From the NCBI GenBank assembly GCA_947466225.1, contig CANIBL010000016.1, positions 1 to 48,870 of the forward strand: a stretch of DNA of 48,870 bases. The letters are read 5' to 3'. The stretch's first letter is position 1; every line of letters begins with the position of its first letter. The notes beneath the pieces are model-generated. The model saw only the letters and a list, made by a program, of their open reading frames with translations. It did no database searches and was not told where the DNA came from. The position numbers and the translations under genes were made by a program. This DNA comes from Deltaproteobacteria bacterium (GTDB lineage Bacteria > Bdellovibrionota_B > Oligoflexia > Oligoflexales > Bog-1112). Positions 7,287 to 46,874 of the stretch are shown here, piece by piece.

Positions 7287-8765
7287 ATGGAGTCTACTAT
7301 GCTGCCTTGGACGCGTCGTCCGATTCGGATTGCAGTGATTGGAGATGTGATTTTGGATGAATACTGGCAAGGGAATGTGCATCGCATTTCCCCTGAAGCC
7401 CCAGTTCCGGTTCATCATGTGCAACAGATTTCTCATCATCCAGGTGGCGCTGCCAATACTGCATTGAATATTCAAAAAGTGGGGGGCCAAGCTTTTCTAT
7501 TTGGCACCTGGGGCAAAGATGAAGCAGCAGAAATTTTGGGTACCTTGTTGGAGTCAGAGGGGATTTCTTGCAAAGGGATTCTACAAGTACCCCAACGACC
7601 CACTGCGAGAAAAACCCGCATTACCTCAGGCCCTCAACAAATGCTGCGCATCGATCGAGAGCAACCTTTTCCCTTAGAAGAAGCTTTTCAGAAAGACTTG
7701 CTGCAACGACTTGAGTCCCAAGAATGGGATGGTTTGTTGCTCAGCGATTATGGTAAAGGCGTTTTGCCATATGCCTTTGTACGTCAAATCATGGCATTGG
7801 CACAGAAACGGAAAATCCCGGTGGTAGTGGATCCAAAGGGCAGAGACTTTGAACGCTACCAAGGCTGCACGTTGGTAACGCCCAACATCAAAGAATCCTG
7901 TGTGGCATTGGGACTCAATGAAGAAGGTAGTTACACAGGGGAATTTTTGGGACGAGAGATTCAGAAAAAGTTTGGACTTCAAGACGTTCTCGTTACCATG
8001 GGCGCAAAGGGCATGATCTACGTGCCCCATGATGCCAAAATAAAGTCTGTACATGCACAAGCAAAAGCAAAGGAAGTATTTGATGTATCCGGCGCTGGAG
8101 ATACGGTTGCCGCTGTAATGGCTCTTTCACTTGCAACCCGAACGCCAGTTGCAAAAGCCGTGCATTTCGCTACCGTAGCTGCGGGAAAAGTTGTAGAAAA
8201 GTGGGGGACTCGCCCCATTCTACAAGAAGAGCTTGAAGTGGGATTGCAAGAAGCGGCGATGGAAAGTGAAACCCAGGTAAAAGGAACCAAAGGCAAAGTA
8301 TGGGCTCGAGACAATTTCCCAGGTCTAGCCAAAAAATTGCATGACCAGCAAAAGAAAATTGTGTTCACCAATGGATGTTTTGATTTGATGCATGTGGGGC
8401 ATGTGACCTACTTGGAACAAGCCAAAGGGTTGGGAGATGTGCTGGTGATCGGGGTCAACACCGATGAATCGGTACAACGTCTGAAAGGGGAAAAGCGTCC
8501 AATTATTCCCCTACAGGAACGTATGCGCATGCTGGCTGGGTTGCAATGTGTGGATTATGTAGTGGCCTTTGGAGAAGATACTCCAGCAGAACTGATCGCA
8601 CAGGTAGAACCGGATGTGTTGGTAAAGGGATCGGATTACCAGGTGCATCAAATTGCAGGCGCCGATTTTGTACTGGCCCGTGGGGGTAGTGTGCAGTGTT
8701 TAGATTTTGTAGAAGGCTGGTCTTCAAGCCGAGTTATTGCGAAGATTTTAGAATCGGAGGGGTAA
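7287..8765 (+). CDS. hldE: Bifunctional heptose-7-phosphate kinase / heptose-1-phosphate adenylyltransferase
   Basis: 492 residues. It makes ADP-heptose for the LPS inner core: the N-terminal kinase phosphorylates D-glycero-D-manno-heptose 7-phosphate at O1, and the C-terminal domain adenylates the 1-phosphate after phosphatase action. The PfkB/ribokinase half (about 1-325) has GGAANTALNIQKVGG and the catalytic GAGD motif within DVSGAGDTVAAV near 265-275. The nucleotidyltransferase half has the HxGH signature in GCFDLMHVGHVTYLEQ near 360-375. Length and fusion match E. coli HldE. A second in-frame ATG at 7299 has GGAG six bases upstream and may be the true start. It is a single gene, divergent from the flagellar operon. 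Confidence 0.97.
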   Translation: MESTMLPWTRRPIRIAVIGDVILDEYWQGNVHRISPEAPVPVHHVQQISHHPGGAANTALNIQKVGGQAFLFGTWGKDEAAEILGTLLESEGISCKGILQVPQRPTARKTRITSGPQQMLRIDREQPFPLEEAFQKDLLQRLESQEWDGLLLSDYGKGVLPYAFVRQIMALAQKRKIPVVVDPKGRDFERYQGCTLVTPNIKESCVALGLNEEGSYTGEFLGREIQKKFGLQDVLVTMGAKGMIYVPHDAKIKSVHAQAKAKEVFDVSGAGDTVAAVMALSLATRTPVAKAVHFATVAAGKVVEKWGTRPILQEELEVGLQEAAMESETQVKGTKGKVWARDNFPGLAKKLHDQQKKIVFTNGCFDLMHVGHVTYLEQAKGLGDVLVIGVNTDESVQRLKGEKRPIIPLQERMRMLAGLQCVDYVVAFGEDTPAELIAQVEPDVLVKGSDYQVHQIAGADFVLARGGSVQCLDFVEGWSSSRVIAKILESEG

Positions 8766-32424: not shown

Positions 32425-32838
32425 TAAATCTTGAAAGAGCGTCTGAATTTGATTGTCTTTCTCAAAAGAAAATGAAAGACGCCAATGCCCCATCATATGT
32501 AGCTTCACAGGGAAAATTTTCCATTTTCCATCGCCCTGGGTGGTAATTGTCGGCGTTACCACCATACCGTGCTTATGTGCAGGCATTTCGGCAGTGAAGG
32601 CGGTGAGTTTCCATTTTCCCCTTGCTCCCTCTGCCTCTTTTGTGTGAGACACTAGCTCGACAAAGAGAGTCATCATCTGATTCAGCTGCTGCGCAACAGG
32701 GGTTTCCGTTTGCACGAGAACCTGAAACAATTGCCCCGGAATCGGCTGACGCGTGACTTCTCGCATTTCCTTTGCTTTCCCCTCAAGAGAAAGTCCCACG
32801 ATCCATATCCATAGCACACCATGCAACCACGTTTTCAT
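32413..32838 (-). CDS. YtkA-like exported protein
   Basis: 141 residues. A signal peptide (WLHGVLWIWIVGLSLEGKA) is followed by an immunoglobulin-like beta domain with AEMPAHKHGMVVTPTITTQG and FPVKLHMMGHWRLSFSF. The MPxHxHGM and MxGxW patterns are typical of YtkA-like domains, found beside copper and cytochrome oxidase genes and suspected of metal (copper) handling. It is upstream of coxB in the same direction. Its first 18 bases overlap the start of the divergent dihaem peroxidase gene, so the two 5' ends share DNA. Confidence 0.75.
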   Translation of the reverse strand: MKTWLHGVLWIWIVGLSLEGKAKEMREVTRQPIPGQLFQVLVQTETPVAQQLNQMMTLFVELVSHTKEAEGARGKWKLTAFTAEMPAHKHGMVVTPTITTQGDGKWKIFPVKLHMMGHWRLSFSFEKDNQIQTLFQDLQVK

Positions 32839-34296
32839 CTATATCTCCTTTACTGCCTCTCACTTATCCTCGGTGTATGTATCTGGATTTTGTCACCAGA
32901 ACTAGATCATTCTGAAGTCTTTCTTCTGCCACGTGAAGCTGAAGTCGTCGAGCAACTTTCAGCCTTTCGATTTTCTACCACATCTCAGAGTTCTCCCTTG
33001 CCATTTGAAATTGCGCGCCAGCAAGTAGGTAAAACCTGGTTTTTTGATCCGCGGTTTTCTCAGAACGGAAAGATCGCCTGCGCAACGTGCCATCAACCAA
33101 ACAAAAATTTCAGCGATGGCATGCCTGTCGCGCAAGGTATGGGACAAGGCGCGCGACGTACGCCTTCTCTTCTAAATGTGAATTTTGCGCACTGGTTCTT
33201 CTGGGATGGCCGCGCAGATTCTCTCGAAGCACAAGCTTTGGGTCCGATCGAACATCCCTTAGAACACGGTAGCAACCGCATGCGGGTAATACACATACTG
33301 CGCATGTGGTATCGAGAAAATTATGAAACTACTTTTGGACCCTGGCCTGAAGTGTTATCTGGCGCGCTACCTCCAGACGCCATGCCACAGCGCGACCCTC
33401 TCTTGCTTTCCCCAAAGATTGCAACGTATGCATTGGCAAGCTTTCAATCTGCGAGTCAACTTCATGAGATTCTACGTGCGGCAGAACGACTACATCAACC
33501 CGTTTGGCAGCGGGTACCAGCCCACACGGTATCGGCAGCGCCTTCAATACCCAAAGCGTGGCTAGATGCCTGGCATCAACTCCCAAAAGAAACGCACCAT
33601 GCGGTAAATCAAGTTTTTGCCAACTTTGGGCGCGGCATAGCGGCCTATGAGCGCACCTTGATCGCCGTTGACTCGCCCTTCGATACCTTTGTGCAGCGCG
33701 CGCAGAAGGAGACGCCCATCGCACAGGCCTTTACGCCCCAATTTTCTACGAGAGAATACGAAGGTCTGCGCCTATTTTTGGGTTCACAGTGCCACAACTG
33801 TCACAGCGGGCCTCTCTTTAGCGACCAGCAATTTCATAATATTGGCCTCCCGATAAAAAAAGGGGAGACACGTATGGATATCGGACGTGCAGCTGGCATT
33901 ATATTGGCACAATCAGAGAAACAGTTCTCCTGCAAAGGACCTTATTTGAACCGTAAAAGCCCAAGTTGTGACGAATTGGAGTATTTAGATCGAGAGAACC
34001 TTGAGATGGTAGGTGGAGTTAAAACACCCTCCCTTCGCAATGTTGCAGAGCGCCCCCCCTATGGACACGACGGGCGGTTCCCCACGCTACGCTCCATATT
34101 AGAGCACTATAATGAACTACGAGAAGAAGCTGGGATCGGGCATCGAGAAGAAACCCTTCGCCCTCTTGGGTTTTCCTCTCTTCAGCTCGACCAACTTGAG
34201 GCATTTCTACGGTCTTTGAGTTCACCTATATCTGAAGTGCACTGGCCCCATTACCCGCGAGATGAGCAAGACTCGCCTCCTCCAAAAATCGAATGA
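32821..34296 (+). CDS. MauG/CcpA-family dihaem cytochrome c peroxidase
   Basis: 491 residues. An N-terminal hydrophobic segment (LYLLYCLSLILGVCIWIL) acts as signal or anchor, placing it in the periplasm. Haem c sites are IACATCH near 86 and GSQCHNCH near 327. Between them lie peroxidase-family motifs: QGARRTPSLLNV, FFWDGRADSLEAQALGPI, and later GGVKTPSLRNVAERPPYGHDGRF. In this family the enzyme reduces H2O2 with electrons from cytochrome c, or performs MauG-type oxidation. No ribosome site is obvious before 32821, and the start could lie slightly downstream. Its 3' end overlaps the glutaminase gene by 71 bp on the opposite strand. Confidence 0.92.
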   Translation: MQPRFHLYLLYCLSLILGVCIWILSPELDHSEVFLLPREAEVVEQLSAFRFSTTSQSSPLPFEIARQQVGKTWFFDPRFSQNGKIACATCHQPNKNFSDGMPVAQGMGQGARRTPSLLNVNFAHWFFWDGRADSLEAQALGPIEHPLEHGSNRMRVIHILRMWYRENYETTFGPWPEVLSGALPPDAMPQRDPLLLSPKIATYALASFQSASQLHEILRAAERLHQPVWQRVPAHTVSAAPSIPKAWLDAWHQLPKETHHAVNQVFANFGRGIAAYERTLIAVDSPFDTFVQRAQKETPIAQAFTPQFSTREYEGLRLFLGSQCHNCHSGPLFSDQQFHNIGLPIKKGETRMDIGRAAGIILAQSEKQFSCKGPYLNRKSPSCDELEYLDRENLEMVGGVKTPSLRNVAERPPYGHDGRFPTLRSILEHYNELREEAGIGHREETLRPLGFSSLQLDQLEAFLRSLSSPISEVHWPHYPRDEQDSPPPKIE

Positions 34297-35875
34297 CTTG
34301 CAGTTTTCCGCTTTTCTTTGCATCGCTAAGTGGAGTCCCTCCCCAACGATCCACAGGGGAAATATTGCGGCACTTTGAAGTCAAATACAGCACAACCGCT
34401 TCATGACCTTCTGAAGCGGCTAAATGGAGTGGAGTACGTCCATCATAGTCAGCTCCATCGGGGTTGGCACCGTTGGAAATCAAATTCTGCACTTCAAACA
34501 AATCCCCTTGGCTGGCAGCCCAGCACAACTGCACCACCGCTTCAATCTTAGATGCATTTTTCTTCAAACGAGGGTCTTTTTTCTTCGATGAATCTACCAC
34601 GATAGAGTCATAAATATGGAAATTGTATTGCTCCACTAAATGTTGGCAAAACTCAATTCCCCTTACAGAGTTTCCTTGGGCATCCAATCGAGGCGACCAA
34701 ATGGCAAAACCCATCACATTGGGAATAACCACCATCACAGCACCGGAAACGCCGCTTTTTGCCGGCAGCCCAATGGAGAAAGCAAACTCTCCAGAAAAAT
34801 CATACATCCCGCAGGAACCCATCAGCGAAAGACAATTCTGTACCGTAGTAGAAGAAAACACCTTCTCTCCACTGATCGGACAAACACCCCCATTGGCCAA
34901 AGATGCTGCCACAACGGACAAGCCTTCAACATCGATTTCAATGGAGCAGCACTGAAAATAAAAATCCAACGTTTGGAGAAGATCAGATCCAGCAGGAAAG
35001 GTTTTCTTTTCGCGCATGAAATATCCCAGCGCAAAATTTCGATCCGCTGTCTCTCGTTCGGAAAGATACACAGGATTGTTAAAATTCAACCGCGCATTTC
35101 CGGACAATTTACTCCAGGCTTGCAAAATGTAATCAAATCGATCCGCCAAATTCAGATCCGAGCGAATAAGCGAGCAGCTCATGATGCCGCCTGAATTGAT
35201 CATGGGGTTATGTGGCAAATCCTTATGATTTAAGCTCAACTCATTAAATCCACGACCACTGGGTTCTCGTCCCACATGTTCATGGACTTTCTCCCTGCCA
35301 TGCTCTTCCAAGGCCAAGCAATAGGTAATAGGCTTACTCGTAGATTGCAAACAAAACGGAGTTTGAGAATCACCGATCGCATAGCGCTGCCCGCTCACAG
35401 TAGTTACGGAAAGGGCATATTTCTCAGGATCTATGCGCCCCAACTCTGGAATATAATCGGCAACTTTTCCACTGCGATTGGACCGAACGGTTTCAAAGAT
35501 CTCGCGAATTTCTTCGCAAAAAGTTTGAAATTCCGGAATAATCAATCGCTGCTGAATGATATTTTTGAAGAGACTGCTATTCTCCCCAATGGTCGCCTTA
35601 AAATCCGAAAAATTGATTTTGGGGCTAGAAAACTTCCGAATGGCTTCCACAGTCTGTTGAATACGAGCGTCATTGAGCAAAATCCCAGACTTTTCTAGGA
35701 GGTCAAATATCTCATGCTTGTCGATCAAGCCATCGGAATCCGAATCAAAAACCGAGAACATCTCTTGATATTCCCGATTCACGCCATCAAAGATATGATC
35801 GACAGCTTGTGACGGCTCTTCCACGCCATTTCCCGATTTTTTACTTGCGCGCGCGTCAACAGCCCGTGTCTTCAT
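34226..35875 (-). CDS. glsA: Eukaryotic-type glutaminase with EF-hand and ankyrin repeats
   Basis: 549 residues. It hydrolyses glutamine to glutamate and ammonia. Layout: a canonical EF-hand loop at 44-55 (DSDSDGLIDKHE, with Asp at 1, 3, 5 and Glu at 12), a helical linker, the serine-dependent glutaminase domain at about 130-420, then ankyrin repeats at about 455-535 (YDGRTPLHLAASEGHEAVVL, DRWGGTPLSDAKKSGKLQV). The catalytic SxxK is QSTSKP near 176-179. GREPSGRGFNELSLN, PHNPMINSGGI, SCGMYDFSGEFAF and GLPAKSGVSGAV track the animal GLS kidney enzyme, as does the layout. Typical bacterial GlsA is about 310 residues without these ends. It is seven bases after glnA and thus in its operon; the last 23 codons overlap the peroxidase gene. 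Confidence 0.94.
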   Translation of the reverse strand: MKTRAVDARASKKSGNGVEEPSQAVDHIFDGVNREYQEMFSVFDSDSDGLIDKHEIFDLLEKSGILLNDARIQQTVEAIRKFSSPKINFSDFKATIGENSSLFKNIIQQRLIIPEFQTFCEEIREIFETVRSNRSGKVADYIPELGRIDPEKYALSVTTVSGQRYAIGDSQTPFCLQSTSKPITYCLALEEHGREKVHEHVGREPSGRGFNELSLNHKDLPHNPMINSGGIMSCSLIRSDLNLADRFDYILQAWSKLSGNARLNFNNPVYLSERETADRNFALGYFMREKKTFPAGSDLLQTLDFYFQCCSIEIDVEGLSVVAASLANGGVCPISGEKVFSSTTVQNCLSLMGSCGMYDFSGEFAFSIGLPAKSGVSGAVMVVIPNVMGFAIWSPRLDAQGNSVRGIEFCQHLVEQYNFHIYDSIVVDSSKKKDPRLKKNASKIEAVVQLCWAASQGDLFEVQNLISNGANPDGADYDGRTPLHLAASEGHEAVVLYLTSKCRNISPVDRWGGTPLSDAKKSGKLQVIRFLEEASLAHLAGNGASALQI

Positions 35876-35882
35876 AGTTCCC

Positions 35883-36938
35883 TCAAAGCTGACATACAGT
35901 TTGAATCAGTTTAGATACAACTTCGTACGGATTGGCATTGGCACCAGGACGACGATCTTCAAAGTATCCATACCCTTCAAGACTTACATTGAGAGGTATT
36001 CGAATTGAAGCGCCCCGATTGGAAACGCCTGATCTGAATGTATTGATATCGCAGGTTTCGTGGTGCCCAGTAAGACGCTCCGCCAAATTTGCGCCATATA
36101 CTGCGATATGTGCATCATGGGCTTTTTCCAAATTTGCAATTGCAGCTTTAATGGCGCTCATACCAGTTTGGGGATCTCGTGTTGCACGAGTTGAGAAATT
36201 GGTATGCATACCAGCCCCATTCCAGTCCCCCTTCACCGGCTTGTTATCGAAAGAAACGGTAACCTGCTTCTCTTCTGCAATGCGATGAATCAAATATCGA
36301 GCCAACCACAAATGATCGGATACAGTCAAAGGATCTGCGCTCTCGCCTTTTTTTCCTCGATACCCAATTTGAAACTCCCATTGACCCGGCATCACCTCTG
36401 CATTGATTCCGTAAATCATCAGGTTCATTTCAGTACATGCCATCATGTGGGCATCTACAATATCTCGCCCATAGGCTACTTTTGCCCCTACGGAGCAATA
36501 GAAGGGGCCTTGTGGCGCAGGATAGCCATCTTTGGGCCAACCCAATGGCGCGTTGTCTTTAAAGAAGGTGTACTCTTGCTCAAAGCCCACCCAAATGTCG
36601 TGCTGATCGCCGCCTTTTTCCAGCAGTCGACGCAACTCTGCTCGCTGATTGGAAGGATGGGGGGTCTTTGCATCTGCCTCGAACACTTCACACATGACCA
36701 AGAACGCATTGTCTGCCCGCAACGTATCTTTTATGTAGGATACCGGTCGCAAGACCAAATCGGAACTACGCCCCTCGGCTTGATACGTAGAAGAACCGTC
36801 AAATCCCCATTCGGGAAAATCTTGCAAGGAAATGCCTGTTTCGCCTTGGGGTATAATTCTGGTTTTGGAACGCAATTGTTGTGTTGGTTGACATCCATCC
36901 AACCAAATGTACTCAGCATAGCAAAATTCGTTTTTCAT
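35883..36938 (-). CDS. glnII: Glutamine synthetase type II (eukaryote-like GSII)
   Basis: 351 residues from ATG 36938, chosen because GGAGGGTT lies just upstream; the frame is open to 37013. It makes glutamine from glutamate, ammonia and ATP. The short length and motifs fit GSII rather than the 470-residue GSI: WGFDGSSTYQAEGRSSDLVL (beta-grasp), VGFEQEYTFF (metal Glu), AEVMPGQWEFQIGY, WNGAGMHTNFS (ATP/Glu site), FRSGVSNRGASIRIP and GYFEDRRPGANANPYEV. No adenylylation site is expected in GSII. It heads a two-gene operon with glutaminase, and a remnant ammonium transporter lies upstream on the same strand. Confidence 0.96.
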   Translation of the reverse strand: MKNEFCYAEYIWLDGCQPTQQLRSKTRIIPQGETGISLQDFPEWGFDGSSTYQAEGRSSDLVLRPVSYIKDTLRADNAFLVMCEVFEADAKTPHPSNQRAELRRLLEKGGDQHDIWVGFEQEYTFFKDNAPLGWPKDGYPAPQGPFYCSVGAKVAYGRDIVDAHMMACTEMNLMIYGINAEVMPGQWEFQIGYRGKKGESADPLTVSDHLWLARYLIHRIAEEKQVTVSFDNKPVKGDWNGAGMHTNFSTRATRDPQTGMSAIKAAIANLEKAHDAHIAVYGANLAERLTGHHETCDINTFRSGVSNRGASIRIPLNVSLEGYGYFEDRRPGANANPYEVVSKLIQTVCQL

Positions 36939-36963: not shown

Positions 36964-36992
36964 AATAGAGTTGAGATACCCTCGACTCTATT
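36964..36992. promoter_or_regulatory. 12-bp inverted repeat upstream of the glutamine synthetase gene
   Basis: AATAGAGTTGAG (36964-36975) and CTCGACTCTATT (36981-36992) pair at 11 of 12 positions around five bases. It lies 26 bases before the ATG, between the dead transporter and glnII. It could be an operator for a nitrogen regulator or a leader hairpin. No sequence-level match to a known site is claimed. Confidence 0.45.
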
Positions 36993-37025: not shown

Positions 37026-37870
37026 CTAGTCCAATCTGCAGAGATTCATCATGCTGGTCCAAATCCAACCCAATTTCTCTTGTCTATGCCCCACTCGCAT
37101 GGGGATAATTCGATTGGTCAAGCAGAAAAAGAAGGCGGAAAGAACGACATAGCAGCATACAATACCCAGACCGAAACGATGGGCCATAAAAGTTGCGCCC
37201 TTTCCAAAAATCAGGTCCACCTCTTTTGCCAATACACCGGTAGCCAACCTCCTGACAATGCCCCCAAGACCCTAACAAGAGAAAATATCAAAAGTATCGT
37301 TGATACAAGTTTGGGTTTTCCAGTGGACAGCAAGACGGCTAATTATACTAGCCAAAATCCCCAAGGCAAGACTTTGGGGAATGGTGATAAAGCCTGCAGC
37401 CGGTGTAACTGCCACAAGCCCCACAACAGAGCCGATACAAACGCCCAAAGTCGAAATTTTTTTGCCGCGCACGAGATCAAAAACGCCCCAAGTTAACATC
37501 GCAGTCGCAGAAGGGCTGTTTGTGGCAGCAAATGCAATCACAGCAGATTCATTCGCCCCAAACGCGCCACCTGCAATAAATCCAAACCAGTGCAGCGACA
37601 ACATGCCGGCTCCCAGTACAACATATGGAATATTGGCAAGGAAATGGGATTTTTTGCTATCCGCCTGGCTCAAAGGAGGACCGAGAAATAAAGCGCCGGC
37701 AAAGCACTCTTACGTCAGAAGAAGTATGAACCACATTGGTAAACATGAAGTAGACACGCGGATCTCCGATGATGCCATGGTAGCGATTGGCAAAAAAAAC
37801 CAAACCCCACCAGAACCAAGGCAACCTCACCACGCCGAAACAGACAAACTTTGAACCGTGGTAGAGGTAC
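37026..37870 (-). pseudogene. amt: Decayed ammonium transporter (Amt family)
   Basis: Read on the minus strand, the intact middle (37673-37275) encodes IPYVVLGAGMLSLHWFGF, GANESAVIAFAATNSPSATA, LTWGVFDLVRGKK and VAVTPAAGFITIPQSLAL, matching Amt helices. A TAG at 37272-37274 interrupts it where Amt has its HGVGG region, after which the same frame continues with GLGGIVRRLATGVLA and an Amt-like C-terminal tail with MRVGHRQEKLGW. Upstream near 37700 a frameshift separates a segment with NVVHTSSDV (Amt VVHxSSGVSAL) from the GALFLGP stretch. The N-terminal third cannot be recovered. It lies upstream of glnII on the same strand, fitting a former transport-assimilation unit. Confidence 0.78.
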
Positions 37871-38855: not shown

Positions 38856-39272
38856 TTATTTTGGTGTATTTTGATTTTCGATATATTTTTTTATGATCTC
38901 AAGAGGTGCTCCGCCACAAGAGGCGGCAAAATAGCTTGGTGACCATAAAGCCTTCTTAAAATATGCGCCTTCAATTTTCTTTCCGTATTTCTTTCTAATT
39001 AATCGGGAAGAGACACCTTTTAAACTGTTCACTAATTTGGAAACACAGACCTTAGGTGGGAAATTCACCAATAGATGAACATGATCTCCTTCGCCATTCA
39101 TCTCTTTAAGATCACATTCAAAATCGAAACAAACCTTTTGAAAAATTTCTTTAAGATCATCGAGCAGGGCTTTTGTGAAAATTTTTCGGCGATATTTTGA
39201 TACAAAGACCAAGTGTACGTGCATTTCAAAAACGCAGTGTCTTCCAGTACGGAAATTAGTTGACAATTCCAT
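38856..39272 (-). CDS. tnpA: IS200/IS605 transposase TnpA (Y1 HUH)
   Basis: 138 residues, full length. The HUH motif HVHLLVNFP lies near 64-72, and the catalytic Tyr is in EIIKKYIENQ near the C-terminus. The N-terminus HVHLVFVSKYRRKIFT is typical of the family. It cuts and rejoins single-stranded element ends through a 5'-phosphotyrosine. AGGAG lies nine bases before the ATG at 39272. Both catalytic motifs are intact, so TnpA may still be active. It is divergent from tnpB, 53 bp apart. Confidence 0.95.
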   Translation of the reverse strand: MELSTNFRTGRHCVFEMHVHLVFVSKYRRKIFTKALLDDLKEIFQKVCFDFECDLKEMNGEGDHVHLLVNFPPKVCVSKLVNSLKGVSSRLIRKKYGKKIEGAYFKKALWSPSYFAASCGGAPLEIIKKYIENQNTPK

Positions 39273-39325
39273 AGACCAACTCCTAAAGTAATATAAAGTT
39301 CATAGCAAATGGAAATTATAGTGTC

Positions 39326-40553
39326 ATGGTAATTCGCAAGGCTTTTAAATTTCGCTTAGAACCATGCCAGAAACAACAAAGTCTTTTGTCTCAGGGCGCT
39401 GGTTGTTCAAGGTTCATATGGAACAAAGCACTTGCTCTACAAAAAGAAAAACTAACGAAGAAAGAAAAAATATTTTCTTATGCAGATCTTTGTAAAGAAC
39501 TTTCCTCATGGAAAGAGACAGAGGAGCTTTCTTTTTTGAGGGAAGCCCACTCGCAACCACTTCAACAAACATTGAAAGACTTAGATCGCGCGATCAAAGA
39601 TGGATTTTCAAAGTCCAAAGGCATGCCAAAATTCAAGAAGAAAAGCATTTCTTGCGAGGGTATGAAATTTCCACAAGGATTTCGATTTGAGGGTCGCCAT
39701 CTTTTCATACCCAAGATTGGGCTGGTAAAAACCTACCAAGGACGCCCTGTCGATGGAACAATGAAAAATCTGACGGTGCGAAAAGAAGCAGGTCTTTGGT
39801 ATGCTGCCGTGCAGGTGGAACAAGAAATTGAAGTGACAACACATGAGAAAATAACCTGCACGGTTGGCATAGATGTGGGGGTAAAACGCTTCGCCACTCT
39901 TTCTAATGGGAAAGTGATTGAGCCAATTTCTGTATATAGAAGATTCGAAGATAAACTAGCCAAAGCATCCAGGAGGTTCGCAAGAAAAGAAAAAAGAGCG
40001 GCGTAATCTTCAGGAGATCCACGAGAAAATTCGTAGGATTCGGCATGATTTTTTGCATAAAGCCACACACTGGATAGCCAAAAACCACGGCACGGTCGTA
40101 CTGGAAGATTTGCAAATTTCCAACATGTCGAGGTCGGCAAAAGGTAGCGTGGAAGAGCCGGGGCGTTGTGTGAAGCAAAAAGCTGGACTCAACAAGTCCA
40201 TTTTGGATCAAGGCTGGTTTGAGTTCAAAAGACAGCTTCAATACAAACTTGACTGGAGTGGTGGGGTTCTGCACGTTGTGCCGCCGCAGTACACCTCTCA
40301 AACGTGCAGTGAGTGTGAACATTGCTCTCCTCTCAATCGCAGGAGCCAGTCTGAGTTTGAATGCGAAAATTGTCATTTCCGAGCCAATGCTGACGAAAAT
40401 GCTGCAAAAAATATAGAAAACAAAGCCCTGGGGCGCAGGGTCATGGCCTGTGGATCGAATCTCGCGGAGAGGTCGTCGAAACAGGAACCGGAGAGGAAGC
40501 GAAAAGTCGGAAAGACCATAAGCAAGCCTCTCTCCTTAGAAATTCCTTTCTAA
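39326..40553 (+). pseudogene. tnpB: TnpB RNA-guided nuclease gene with one frameshift
   Basis: Two overlapping pieces (39326-40006 and about 39990-40553) would make about 409 residues if joined by a +1 shift in the A-rich tract near 39983-39996. All nuclease residues remain: RuvC Asp in VGIDVGVKRFATLS, Glu in VVLEDLQISNM, the zinc finger CSECEHC...CENC, and the last Asp in ANADENAAKNI. The N-terminus VIRKAFKFRLEPCQKQQ is normal. TnpB is the Cas12 ancestor that cuts empty donor sites with an omega-RNA from the element's right end. The shift may be a real inactivation, programmed frameshifting or an assembly error at the homopolymer. Confidence 0.88.
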
Positions 40554-45341: not shown

Positions 45342-46874
45342 ATGCAAAAAAATCTGCTGTTGGTTGCATCCGAAGCGCAGTTGATGCTCACCCGAGAAAG
45401 CCTTACGCACATGCATGCCGAGGTAAGCCGAGATCGACAGGTCGAATGCTACAAGATCCCACACAAGAGTTTTACCGAGCTCGAGTTATTCCTCTATCTT
45501 TACCCCTCCCTGGATGCGATAACACCGCACCTACGACGCTACCCCGTAGATCTCCTGCTCTATGATGAGCGACAAGGAGGGCTTGACGCCGTCATTGCCA
45601 TGGACAAGCTGCAAGGGGATTTACAAGCATTAGCGGAGCTGTGGGGTCCTGATTTTCAGTTTCCCATGGGTCGTACCGTGGTGATCTTAGATGATCGTAA
45701 AGACTCTGCCCACCGCACGTTCATTCTGGGACGTGAGCAAGTACGAGATGTTTTGGTAGCCCCAGAAAATTTTTCTCGTATTCTGCGATTTATCGGCAAG
45801 ATACTCATCGCCGATCTTCGACAAAACCAACAAAAAATCGGATGCGCCCTGAGCGGAGGGGGGCTCGAAGGATTTCTCTACCAAGTTGGTTGTACCTACG
45901 CCTTGGAGTCCAGTTTAACGGGACGGGCTTTTAGCGATTGCAACTTGTACTCTGGGGTGAGCTCCGGGTCCATTGTTGCCACGATTCTGGCCAGTAAGAT
46001 TCCTATGGAAGAAGTAGCGGCCTCGCTCTTTGGAAAGTCCGATCGCCTGCCCCAAATGAAAGGCTCTGCCCTCTACGACTTTGCCGGCAAAGAAATCATC
46101 GGCCGCATCGCAAAAGAAAGTATACGTTGGTCCGGGCTTGACCCGTATCAGTGGGCGCAGAAGTTTTTCCGCAGCATCCCCACAGGGTTCTTTAAAGGCG
46201 ACCACCTGCGAGAGTATATTGCCAATGCCATTGCGGAGTACGGAGGTGATGACTCTTTTTCTAGTTTAGAAGCTGAACTCATCATCGGCGCTACAAGCCA
46301 AGACAACTATGAACATGTAATTTTTGGCGCGCCCCCGTGGCAAGATGCCAAAATAAGCGATGCGGTACGCGCCTCCTGCGCGCTGCCTCCGGTTTTTACC
46401 CCTCATATGATTGCAGGGAAAAACTACATCGATGGGCAAATCACCCGCACGTGTAACCTGGAATGGATGGTGAAACGGGGCTGTAGCTTGATCTTTATCA
46501 TCGACCCTCTCAAACCCTACTACACCAACCACGAAGAAGGCATGGATGCATTAGGTGGGGTATTTAATTTGATTCAAACCATCAAGACCTTGGTGTATAC
46601 CCGGTTTCGTACTGCGCTAGCGCACCTCACGGAACGATATCCGGAAGTAGATTTTATCGTCTTTCAACCCTATGATGAATGCGCCCAACTGATGGCTGGC
46701 TCCCCCATGAAATACCGCATCAATGTAGAAATCATTCGACAAGCCTACGTGGGCACCTTGCGCAAACTGCGCATTCGGCACTCCGTTTATGCCAATCGAT
46801 TGGCCAAACACGGCTTTACCTTGATTTCCGAAAAAGCATTATTTGAGAAAGAAAAGGCATCCCTTGATTTTTAG
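45342..46874 (+). CDS. Patatin-like phospholipase with unrecognised N-terminal domain
   Basis: 510 residues. The patatin domain (about 165-400) has the oxyanion motif SGGGLEG near 171-177, the nucleophile GVSSGS near 205-210 and the dyad Asp in YIDGQ near 363 (DGQ instead of the usual DGG/A). Such enzymes are acyl hydrolases; bacterial members include secreted effectors. The first 160 residues are not a known domain: they have predicted beta/alpha segments (LLLVASEAQLMLTRESL, VDLLLYDERQGGLDAVIAM) that hint at a receiver- or Rossmann-like fold, but motifs are missing. No signal peptide. The ribosome site is GGGAGAG. It is 12 bases after dsbD and overlaps or abuts sfsA. Confidence 0.9.
   Translation: MQKNLLLVASEAQLMLTRESLTHMHAEVSRDRQVECYKIPHKSFTELELFLYLYPSLDAITPHLRRYPVDLLLYDERQGGLDAVIAMDKLQGDLQALAELWGPDFQFPMGRTVVILDDRKDSAHRTFILGREQVRDVLVAPENFSRILRFIGKILIADLRQNQQKIGCALSGGGLEGFLYQVGCTYALESSLTGRAFSDCNLYSGVSSGSIVATILASKIPMEEVAASLFGKSDRLPQMKGSALYDFAGKEIIGRIAKESIRWSGLDPYQWAQKFFRSIPTGFFKGDHLREYIANAIAEYGGDDSFSSLEAELIIGATSQDNYEHVIFGAPPWQDAKISDAVRASCALPPVFTPHMIAGKNYIDGQITRTCNLEWMVKRGCSLIFIIDPLKPYYTNHEEGMDALGGVFNLIQTIKTLVYTRFRTALAHLTERYPEVDFIVFQPYDECAQLMAGSPMKYRINVEIIRQAYVGTLRKLRIRHSVYANRLAKHGFTLISEKALFEKEKASLDF

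What the first reader, a model, noticed from the sequence alone, without database searches (positions are those of the whole stretch)
34226..36938. Operon joining type II glutamine synthetase and an animal-type glutaminase
The two genes are seven bases apart and encode opposite reactions. Both products are of the kinds best known from eukaryotes: short GSII, and a GLS-like glutaminase with EF-hand and ankyrin ends. Together they could cycle glutamine, glutamate and ammonia, set the Gln:Glu ratio, or release ammonia at a chosen place. I know of no described system that pairs them like this. Gene transfer from or with a eukaryote, or ancestry shared with symbionts, is possible.
Basis: partly seen in the sequence, partly recalled or inferred. 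Interest (0 to 1): 0.78.

Follow-up and report, generated by a model that had tools for sequence, protein, structure and literature searches.

The report
Conserved ammonium–glutamine gene module in bacteria
A bacterium keeps the gene that makes glutamine next to a human-like gene that breaks it down, and relatives in at least six bacterial phyla do the same, usually with an ammonium channel gene, so this looks like a real but undescribed bacterial system for balancing glutamine rather than genes taken from animals.

Summary
Window 35883-36938(-) encodes type II glutamine synthetase (GSII). Seven bases on, 34226-35875(-) encodes a glutaminase with the full human KGA architecture (EF-hand, glutaminase, ankyrin; 46% identity; predicted fold TM 0.91 to human KGA). 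The pairing is not private to this genome. Among 80 bacterial GLS loci, 29 have GSII and 36 have Amt within 2.7 kb, 20 have both, in five of six possible gene orders. GLS genomes without a linked GSII mostly lack GSII altogether (29 of 33 tested). Ordinary glutaminases show no such linkage (0 of 16). Transfer from a eukaryote is not supported: both proteins sit in bacterial clades, human GLS nests inside bacterial GLS, and the window's GSII and GLS have different histories. I think the module is a glutamine homeostat: Amt and GSII build glutamine, GLS drains the excess. Bacterial GLS keeps the mammalian filament interface but lost the phosphate-switch lysine, so glutamine alone may switch it on. 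The host family lacks PII and GlnE. The linkage is shown; the mechanism is inferred.

The parts
35883..36938 (-). GSII (GlnII-type glutamine synthetase), 351 aa, ATG start; residues at the A2-invariant active-site columns present; carries a ~7-aa insert (GYRGKKGESADPL) shared by its bacterial subclade
34226..35875 (-). GLS-type glutaminase, 549 aa, human KGA architecture
35534..35761 (-). EF-hand_14 domain of GLS (residues 39-114)
   Evidence: model pLDDT >90 there
35711..35746 (-). canonical Ca2+-type EF-hand loop DSDSDGLIDKHE (residues 44-55); degenerate in most other bacterial GLS and in human GLS
34610..35470 (-). glutaminase catalytic domain (residues 136-422); human S286/K289/Y249/N335/E381/N388/Y414/Y466/V484 equivalents all present; K320 equivalent is E212, R317 equivalent is G209
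34283..34528 (-). ankyrin repeats (residues 450-531)
35876..35882 (-). 7-bp gap; SD-like GAGGG overlaps the GSII stop codon; no promoter- or terminator-like site in the gap
37035..37851 (-). decayed Amt (ammonium transporter) gene: matches Amt residues 89-129 and 224-440 of L045 Amt, lacks the N-terminus and a middle stretch, internal TAG at about 37272; the only Amt-family match in the genome assembly
36964..36992 (-). 8-bp perfect inverted repeat AATAGAGT-N13-ACTCTATT just upstream of the GSII ribosome site; possible operator or attenuator, not seen upstream of GSII in family relatives

Best explanation
The pair is the surviving core of a three-gene ammonium/glutamine module, amt + glnII + gls, shared by many bacterial phyla and repeatedly reassembled by transfer. 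SHOWN: the genes, their domains, conserved linkage in changing orders, GSII mostly absent when not linked, bacterial ancestry, conserved catalytic residues. INFERRED: Amt imports ammonium and GSII, which lacks the adenylylation switch of type I GS (background knowledge), makes glutamine. GLS is made from the same message but works only when glutamine is high: glutamine binding drives tetramers into active filaments through the interface known from mammalian GLS/GLS2, glutamine is hydrolysed to glutamate and NH4+, and the filaments fall apart as glutamine falls. GLS would thus be a substrate-gated relief valve that resets Gln:Glu after an ammonium upshift, doing post-translationally what PII/GlnE-controlled GS and GlnK-gated Amt do elsewhere. 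Because the activation-loop lysine that makes human GLS phosphate-dependent is replaced (E in this protein), phosphate should not be needed. In this protein an intact EF-hand loop may add Ca2+ control. Here amt has decayed, so the cell probably depends on NH3 diffusion or amino acids and the pair mainly buffers the Gln:Glu ratio.
For: Linkage: 29/80 GLS loci with GSII, 36/80 with Amt, 20 with both within 2.7 kb; orders gs-GLS-amt, gs-amt-GLS, amt-GLS-gs, amt-gs-GLS, GLS-gs-amt; Amt and GSII are the commonest real neighbours. 29 of 33 GLS genomes without a linked GSII have none anywhere; in 10 of 15 linked genomes the linked GSII is the only GSII. Control: ordinary glutaminase and GSII never adjacent in 16 Flavobacteriaceae. 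In the window's family, intact Amt occurs only in GLS+GSII genomes and, where contigs allow, beside GLS; G003 and G005 lack all three. PII absent from 8/8 family genomes (13/14 controls have it) and GlnE absent from 8/8. Filament residues F355, F373, Q416, D412(E) kept in 84-86 of 86 bacterial GLS but not in ordinary glutaminases; K320 replaced in 86/86, E in 77. Glutamine-driven filaments and constitutive K320A/K253A mutants of the human enzymes: PMC10912226, PMC13142944. Different histories of GSII and GLS argue that selection holds the genes together.
Against: No expression, enzyme or filament data exist. Filament formation in bacterial GLS is extrapolated from a few interface residues (F378 is Y; R317 and E325, a salt bridge in the human active filament, are not conserved). 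K320 is mostly E, not the A of the tested human mutants. Some hosts with the module do have GlnE (Salinispora G058, Marinicaulis G066), so lack of GlnE is not general; PII was searched only in the window's family. Many GLS genes (35/80) have neither partner nearby. The genome also has a type I GS (G000:C20), so GSII need not carry the main flux. Amt is broken here. Two family genomes lacking the module also lack PII, so PII absence is a lineage trait.
Confidence: 0.5

Rival explanations
1. GLS supplies glutamate (and NH4+ for glutamate dehydrogenase) rather than relieving glutamine excess: in cells without GOGAT, glutamine made by GSII or taken up is the nitrogen store and GLS returns it to glutamate for anabolism or as an osmolyte.
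For: No full-length GOGAT large subunit in G000, G004, G007, G003, G001 (at most ~20-bit matches). In a cyanobacterial locus (L093) the GLS neighbours are a cyclase and a cNMP-binding mechanosensitive channel, which hints at osmotic control.
Against: G002 and G006 have GOGAT and still carry the set. Making glutamine with ATP only to hydrolyse it gives no net glutamate unless glutamine is imported, and no glutamine transporter was found among conserved neighbours. GDH was not searched.
Confidence: 0.18
2. The module makes or moves ammonia: GLS releases NH3 inside the cell for acid defence, or for outward passage through Amt to a neighbour or host.
For: Amt is the commonest linked gene (36/80); ordinary glutaminase YbaS works with GadC in E. 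coli acid resistance (background knowledge).
Against: No GadC-like antiporter among conserved neighbours; GSII next door would recapture the ammonia; Amt proteins are mainly importers (background knowledge). Lifestyle of the host was not tested beyond the presence of flagellar FliF in the window.
Confidence: 0.1
3. Hitch-hiking: three nitrogen genes of overlapping regulation travel together by horizontal transfer without any functional cycle between GSII and GLS.
For: Patchy distribution (GLS-type in 2 of 101 Flavobacteriaceae) and different histories of the window's GSII and GLS.
Against: Different gene orders, different GSII subclades joined to GLS and partial replacement within the cluster are not expected of simple co-transfer; ordinary glutaminases show no such linkage.
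Confidence: 0.15
4. The pair came from a eukaryote, or from a symbiont sharing ancestry with one.
For: Human-like domain order and 46% identity to human GLS.
Against: GSII in a bacterial clade; human GLS inside the bacterial GLS tree (AU p=0.004 against a separate bacterial clade); window contig carries bacterial core genes (IF-2, NusA, FliF).
Confidence: 0.01

Closest known systems
Human glutaminase KGA (GLS) and GLS2
   Same: EF-hand-like N-domain, glutaminase domain, C-terminal ankyrin repeats; all ten catalytic-site positions checked; predicted fold TM 0.91 (target-normalised) to 8gwr; filament-interface F355, F373, Q416, D412
   Different: No mitochondrial context; K320 to E, R317 to G and E325 to H in the activation loop (no phosphate switch predicted); canonical Ca2+ loop in the EF-hand; linked to glnII and amt
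GlnII (type II glutamine synthetase) of Streptomyces, rhizobia and Bacteroidota
   Same: GSII family, ~350 aa, conserved active-site columns; 52% identity to S. coelicolor GlnII (4bax)
   Different: Belongs to another bacterial subclade with a 7-aa insert; sits in an operon-like unit with a glutaminase
Ordinary bacterial glutaminases (YbaS/GlsA, YneH, B. subtilis YbgJ)
   Same: Same catalytic fold and residues
   Different: Separate clade (100/100); no EF-hand and ankyrin pair; filament-interface residues F355, F373, Q416 not conserved; not linked to GSII (0/16)
amtB-glnK operons
   Same: Ammonium channel encoded with a partner that responds to nitrogen status
   Different: Partners are GSII and GLS, not a PII protein; the window's family has no PII at all

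Membership tests
GLS-type (KGA-like) glutaminase | EF-hand-like N-domain + glutaminase + ankyrin repeats | tested here: met
   Pfam hits in that order; fold match to 8gwr/5uqe
GLS-type (KGA-like) glutaminase | Catalytic residues Y249, S286, K289, N335, E381, N388, Y414, Y466, V484 | tested here: met
   all present
GLS-type (KGA-like) glutaminase | Groups with KGA apart from ordinary glutaminases | tested here: met
   100/100 clade
GLS-type (KGA-like) glutaminase | Phosphate activation through K320/R317 and the E325 salt bridge | tested here: not met
   E, G and H at these positions; so 'phosphate-activated glutaminase' is not claimed
GLS-type (KGA-like) glutaminase | Filament-interface residues | tested here: met
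   F355, F373, D412, Q416 kept; F378 is Y
GLS-type (KGA-like) glutaminase | Forms filaments | not testable with these tools
   needs electron microscopy
GSII / GlnII | Short (~350 aa) GS with beta-grasp and catalytic domains of type II | tested here: met
   NF041605 440 bits, under its 500-bit equivalog cut-off, probably because of subclade divergence (inferred)
GSII / GlnII | Active-site Glu/His/Arg columns | tested here: met
   present among invariant columns of alignment A2
amt-glnII-gls module | GLS within 2.7 kb of GSII and/or Amt, also in other lineages | tested here: met
amt-glnII-gls module | Intact Amt | tested here: not met
   truncated, internal TAG; the window holds a degenerate form of the module
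Eukaryote-derived gene pair | Nesting inside eukaryotic clades | tested here: not met
amt-glnII-gls module | Single transcript | not testable with these tools
   no RNA data; 7-bp gap and overlapping SD only

The most novel reading that the evidence does not exclude
A bacterial glutamine homeostat that works by enzyme polymerisation and replaces PII/GlnE control: Amt and GSII push nitrogen in, and a glutamine-gated, phosphate-independent filament of GLS (in some species Ca2+-tuned) drains the excess. It would be the ancestral setting from which the animal glutaminase and its filament switch were taken.
Probability: 0.3. Interest if true: 0.8.

Novelty: new variant of a known kind. Interest (0 to 1): 0.62.

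Why it matters
It shows a recurrent but apparently undescribed bacterial gene module that pairs opposing enzymes of glutamine metabolism with an ammonium channel, in culturable genera (Salinispora, Micromonospora, Nannocystis, Christiangramia, Reichenbachiella), so the function can be tested now. It also bears on the animal enzyme that cancer drugs target: human GLS nests among these bacterial proteins, which already carry its filament interface but not its phosphate switch. That makes the order in which these regulatory traits arose directly testable, and it qualifies the published statement that bacterial glutaminases lack the filament interface (PMC13142944), which fits ordinary bacterial glutaminases but not this group.

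Tried and rejected
Eukaryotic origin: rejected by trees and AU test. Chance adjacency: rejected by conservation and the ordinary-glutaminase control. One inherited block: rejected for the window, where GLS groups with L045 and Actinomycetota (AU p=0.0009 against a clade with its family's G004/G007 and L099) while GSII groups with G004/G007/L099 (98/94; AU p=0.036 against pairing with L045). Promoters/terminators: counts no higher than in shuffles. Operator upstream of GSII: an 8-bp inverted repeat exists, but no matching one in relatives. Pasquali et al. 2017 (J Biol Chem 292:11572) on the origin of glutaminase ankyrin repeats is not held; I recall it proposing that the multidomain architecture came from bacterial ancestors, and its citation in PMC13142944 says the repeats were acquired early. 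Literature search covers open-access papers only. Several GLS sequences come from fragmentary MAGs and some are split in frame (L045, L063, L105, L109).

Full report
OBSERVATION. The two ORFs are as described: GSII at 35883-36938(-), 351 aa, and GLS at 34226-35875(-), 549 aa, with 7 bp between them and the GLS ribosome site overlapping the GSII stop. GSII matches the GSII/GlnII families. GLS has EF-hand_14 (39-114), Glutaminase (136-422) and Ank_2 (450-531). Its best solved relatives are human KGA and GLS2, 503 and 477 bits, against about 201 bits for the best ordinary bacterial glutaminase. A model from 46 bacterial GLS (pLDDT 90) matches near full-length human KGA 8gwr over 500 columns with TM 0.91 (target-normalised), and GAC cores at 1.3-1.7 A. 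The contig carries IF-2, NusA and FliF, so it is bacterial.

A THIRD GENE. Directly upstream lies a broken ammonium transporter. The ORF 37272-37673(-) matches Amt positions 193-314; tblastn with the L045 Amt recovers residues 89-129 and 224-440 through an in-frame TAG. It is the only Amt-family match in the genome. In the family relatives G007 and G004, Amt is intact and directly downstream of GSII-GLS; in G002 it is convergent with GLS; in G006 it lies near the edge of another contig. Every family genome with intact Amt also has GLS and GSII. G001 has GSII and GLS but no Amt found (84% complete). G003 and G005 have none of the three.

CONSERVATION. A scan of 84,980 species genomes with the GLS alignment gave 220 relatives, of which 80 were kept. 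Within 2.7 kb, 29 have GSII, 36 have Amt, 45 have either and 20 have both. Five of the six possible orders occur. Linkage to GSII is seen in Actinomycetota, Bacteroidota, Myxococcota, Pseudomonadota, Planctomycetota and Bdellovibrionota, and to Amt also in Ignavibacteriota. Clustering of all ORFs within 6 kb shows Amt and GSII as the commonest real neighbours (the other large clusters are shadow ORFs of GLS or Amt, by inspection). Of 33 GLS genomes without a linked GSII, only 4 have GSII elsewhere. In 15 linked genomes the linked GSII is the only one in 10. Control: in 101 Flavobacteriaceae, 16 genomes hold an ordinary glutaminase and a GSII, never adjacent; GLS-type occurs in 2, one linked to GSII and one with no GSII (pairs compared by coordinates).

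ANCESTRY. GSII tree: the window's GSII groups with G004, G007 and L099 (98/94) in a bacterial subclade bearing a 7-aa insert; dog and yeast GS are apart. GLS tree: bacterial GLS-type plus human GLS/GLS2 form one clade (100/100) away from ordinary glutaminases, and human GLS lies inside the bacterial part; a tree with bacterial GLS as one clade is rejected (AU p=0.004). Only human sequences represented eukaryotes and their branch is long, so the exact position is unsure. The window's GLS is sister to L045, next to Actinomycetota (100/94), and a clade with G004/G007/L099 is rejected (p=0.0009); its GSII does not pair with L045's (p=0.036). The cluster was therefore put together from parts with different histories. 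L099 is titled Oligoflexia (Bdellovibrionota) and groups with two genomes of the window's own family, so the host is probably of that lineage (inferred).

RESIDUES. In 86 bacterial GLS all checked catalytic positions are kept. The mammalian filament-interface residues F355, F373, Q416 and D412 (E or D) are kept in 84-86 of 86, F378 is mostly Y, and ordinary glutaminases do not keep F355, F373 or Q416. K320, the phosphate-sensing lysine whose K320A change makes human GAC filament with glutamine alone (PMC10912226), is replaced in all 86 (E in 77, A in 4); R317 and E325 are also mostly lost. R387 is kept. I predict glutamine-driven, phosphate-independent assembly; this is inference. The window's EF-hand loop DSDSDGLIDKHE fits the Ca2+ consensus; only a few other sequences do (L084, L104, L118, L082).

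REGULATORY BACKGROUND. PII is absent from all 8 genomes of the family, though found in 13 of 14 control genomes; GlnE is absent from all 8. Full-length GOGAT large subunit is absent from G000, G001, G003, G004 and G007. A type I GS is present in G000. A cell with an unadenylylated GSII, no PII and no GlnE lacks the usual brakes on glutamine synthesis, which fits a glutaminase as counterweight. Salinispora and Marinicaulis do have GlnE, so the module is not restricted to such cells.

MECHANISM. Best explanation (0.5): a relief-valve glutamine homeostat. Shown: the genes, linkage, residues, ancestry. Inferred: co-transcription, glutamine-driven filaments, relief of glutamine excess, Ca2+ tuning. 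Rivals are glutamate supply in GOGAT-less cells, ammonia release, and hitch-hiking; each is stated with its refuter.

NOVELTY. GLS architecture in bacteria and bacterial GSII are known in themselves (the former from recollection of Pasquali et al. 2017, not readable here; cited in PMC13142944). I found no paper describing GLS-GSII-Amt linkage (open-access library only). The conserved module and the conserved filament interface without the phosphate lysine are what I consider new.

Noticed in passing
L002 (G007) ~1412-1425 and L004 (G006) ~1357-1370: The likely GLS start ATG is followed at once by an A10 tract that puts the ATG one base out of frame with GLS in both genomes; slippage, phase variation or assembly error.
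   Followed up: partly
G000 and 7 family genomes: No PII-family protein in any of 8 genomes of the window's family, although 13 of 14 control genomes have one: an unusual absence of a near-universal nitrogen sensor.
   Followed up: partly
L097 and L115, ~7700-8430: A response-regulator gene (LuxR-type by Pfam in L097) lies between amt and GSII-GLS in two Bdellovibrionota MAGs: candidate regulator of the module.
   Followed up: partly
L093 5804-9893 (L098 also has amt ~4.3 kb upstream of GLS): Next to a cyanobacterial GLS are a Cache-domain adenylate/guanylate cyclase and a cyclic-nucleotide-binding MscS channel, with amt further upstream: possible second-messenger or osmotic link. The intervening genes were identified in L093 only.
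   Followed up: partly
L085 6414-8111 and similar in other Bacteroidota loci: An alpha/beta-hydrolase fused to an AraC-type regulator sits upstream of the GLS cluster in about seven loci, six of them Bacteroidota.
   Followed up: no
window 34226-34296: The 3' ends of GLS and of a MauG-like di-heme gene (32821-34296, +) overlap by 71 bp tail to tail.
   Followed up: no
window 38856-40553: IS200/IS605-type element close to the decayed amt: Y1 transposase (38856-39272, -) and a TnpB-like gene split between 39326-40006 and 40053-40553 (+).
   Followed up: partly
window 45342-46874: Patatin-like phospholipase with weak similarity to Legionella VpdC and CBASS lipases, just downstream of a DsbD-like gene.
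   Followed up: no
L045 10001-11579: The closest GLS relative (72% identity) has a frameshift between the EF-hand and catalytic domains and a divergently oriented GSII.
   Followed up: partly
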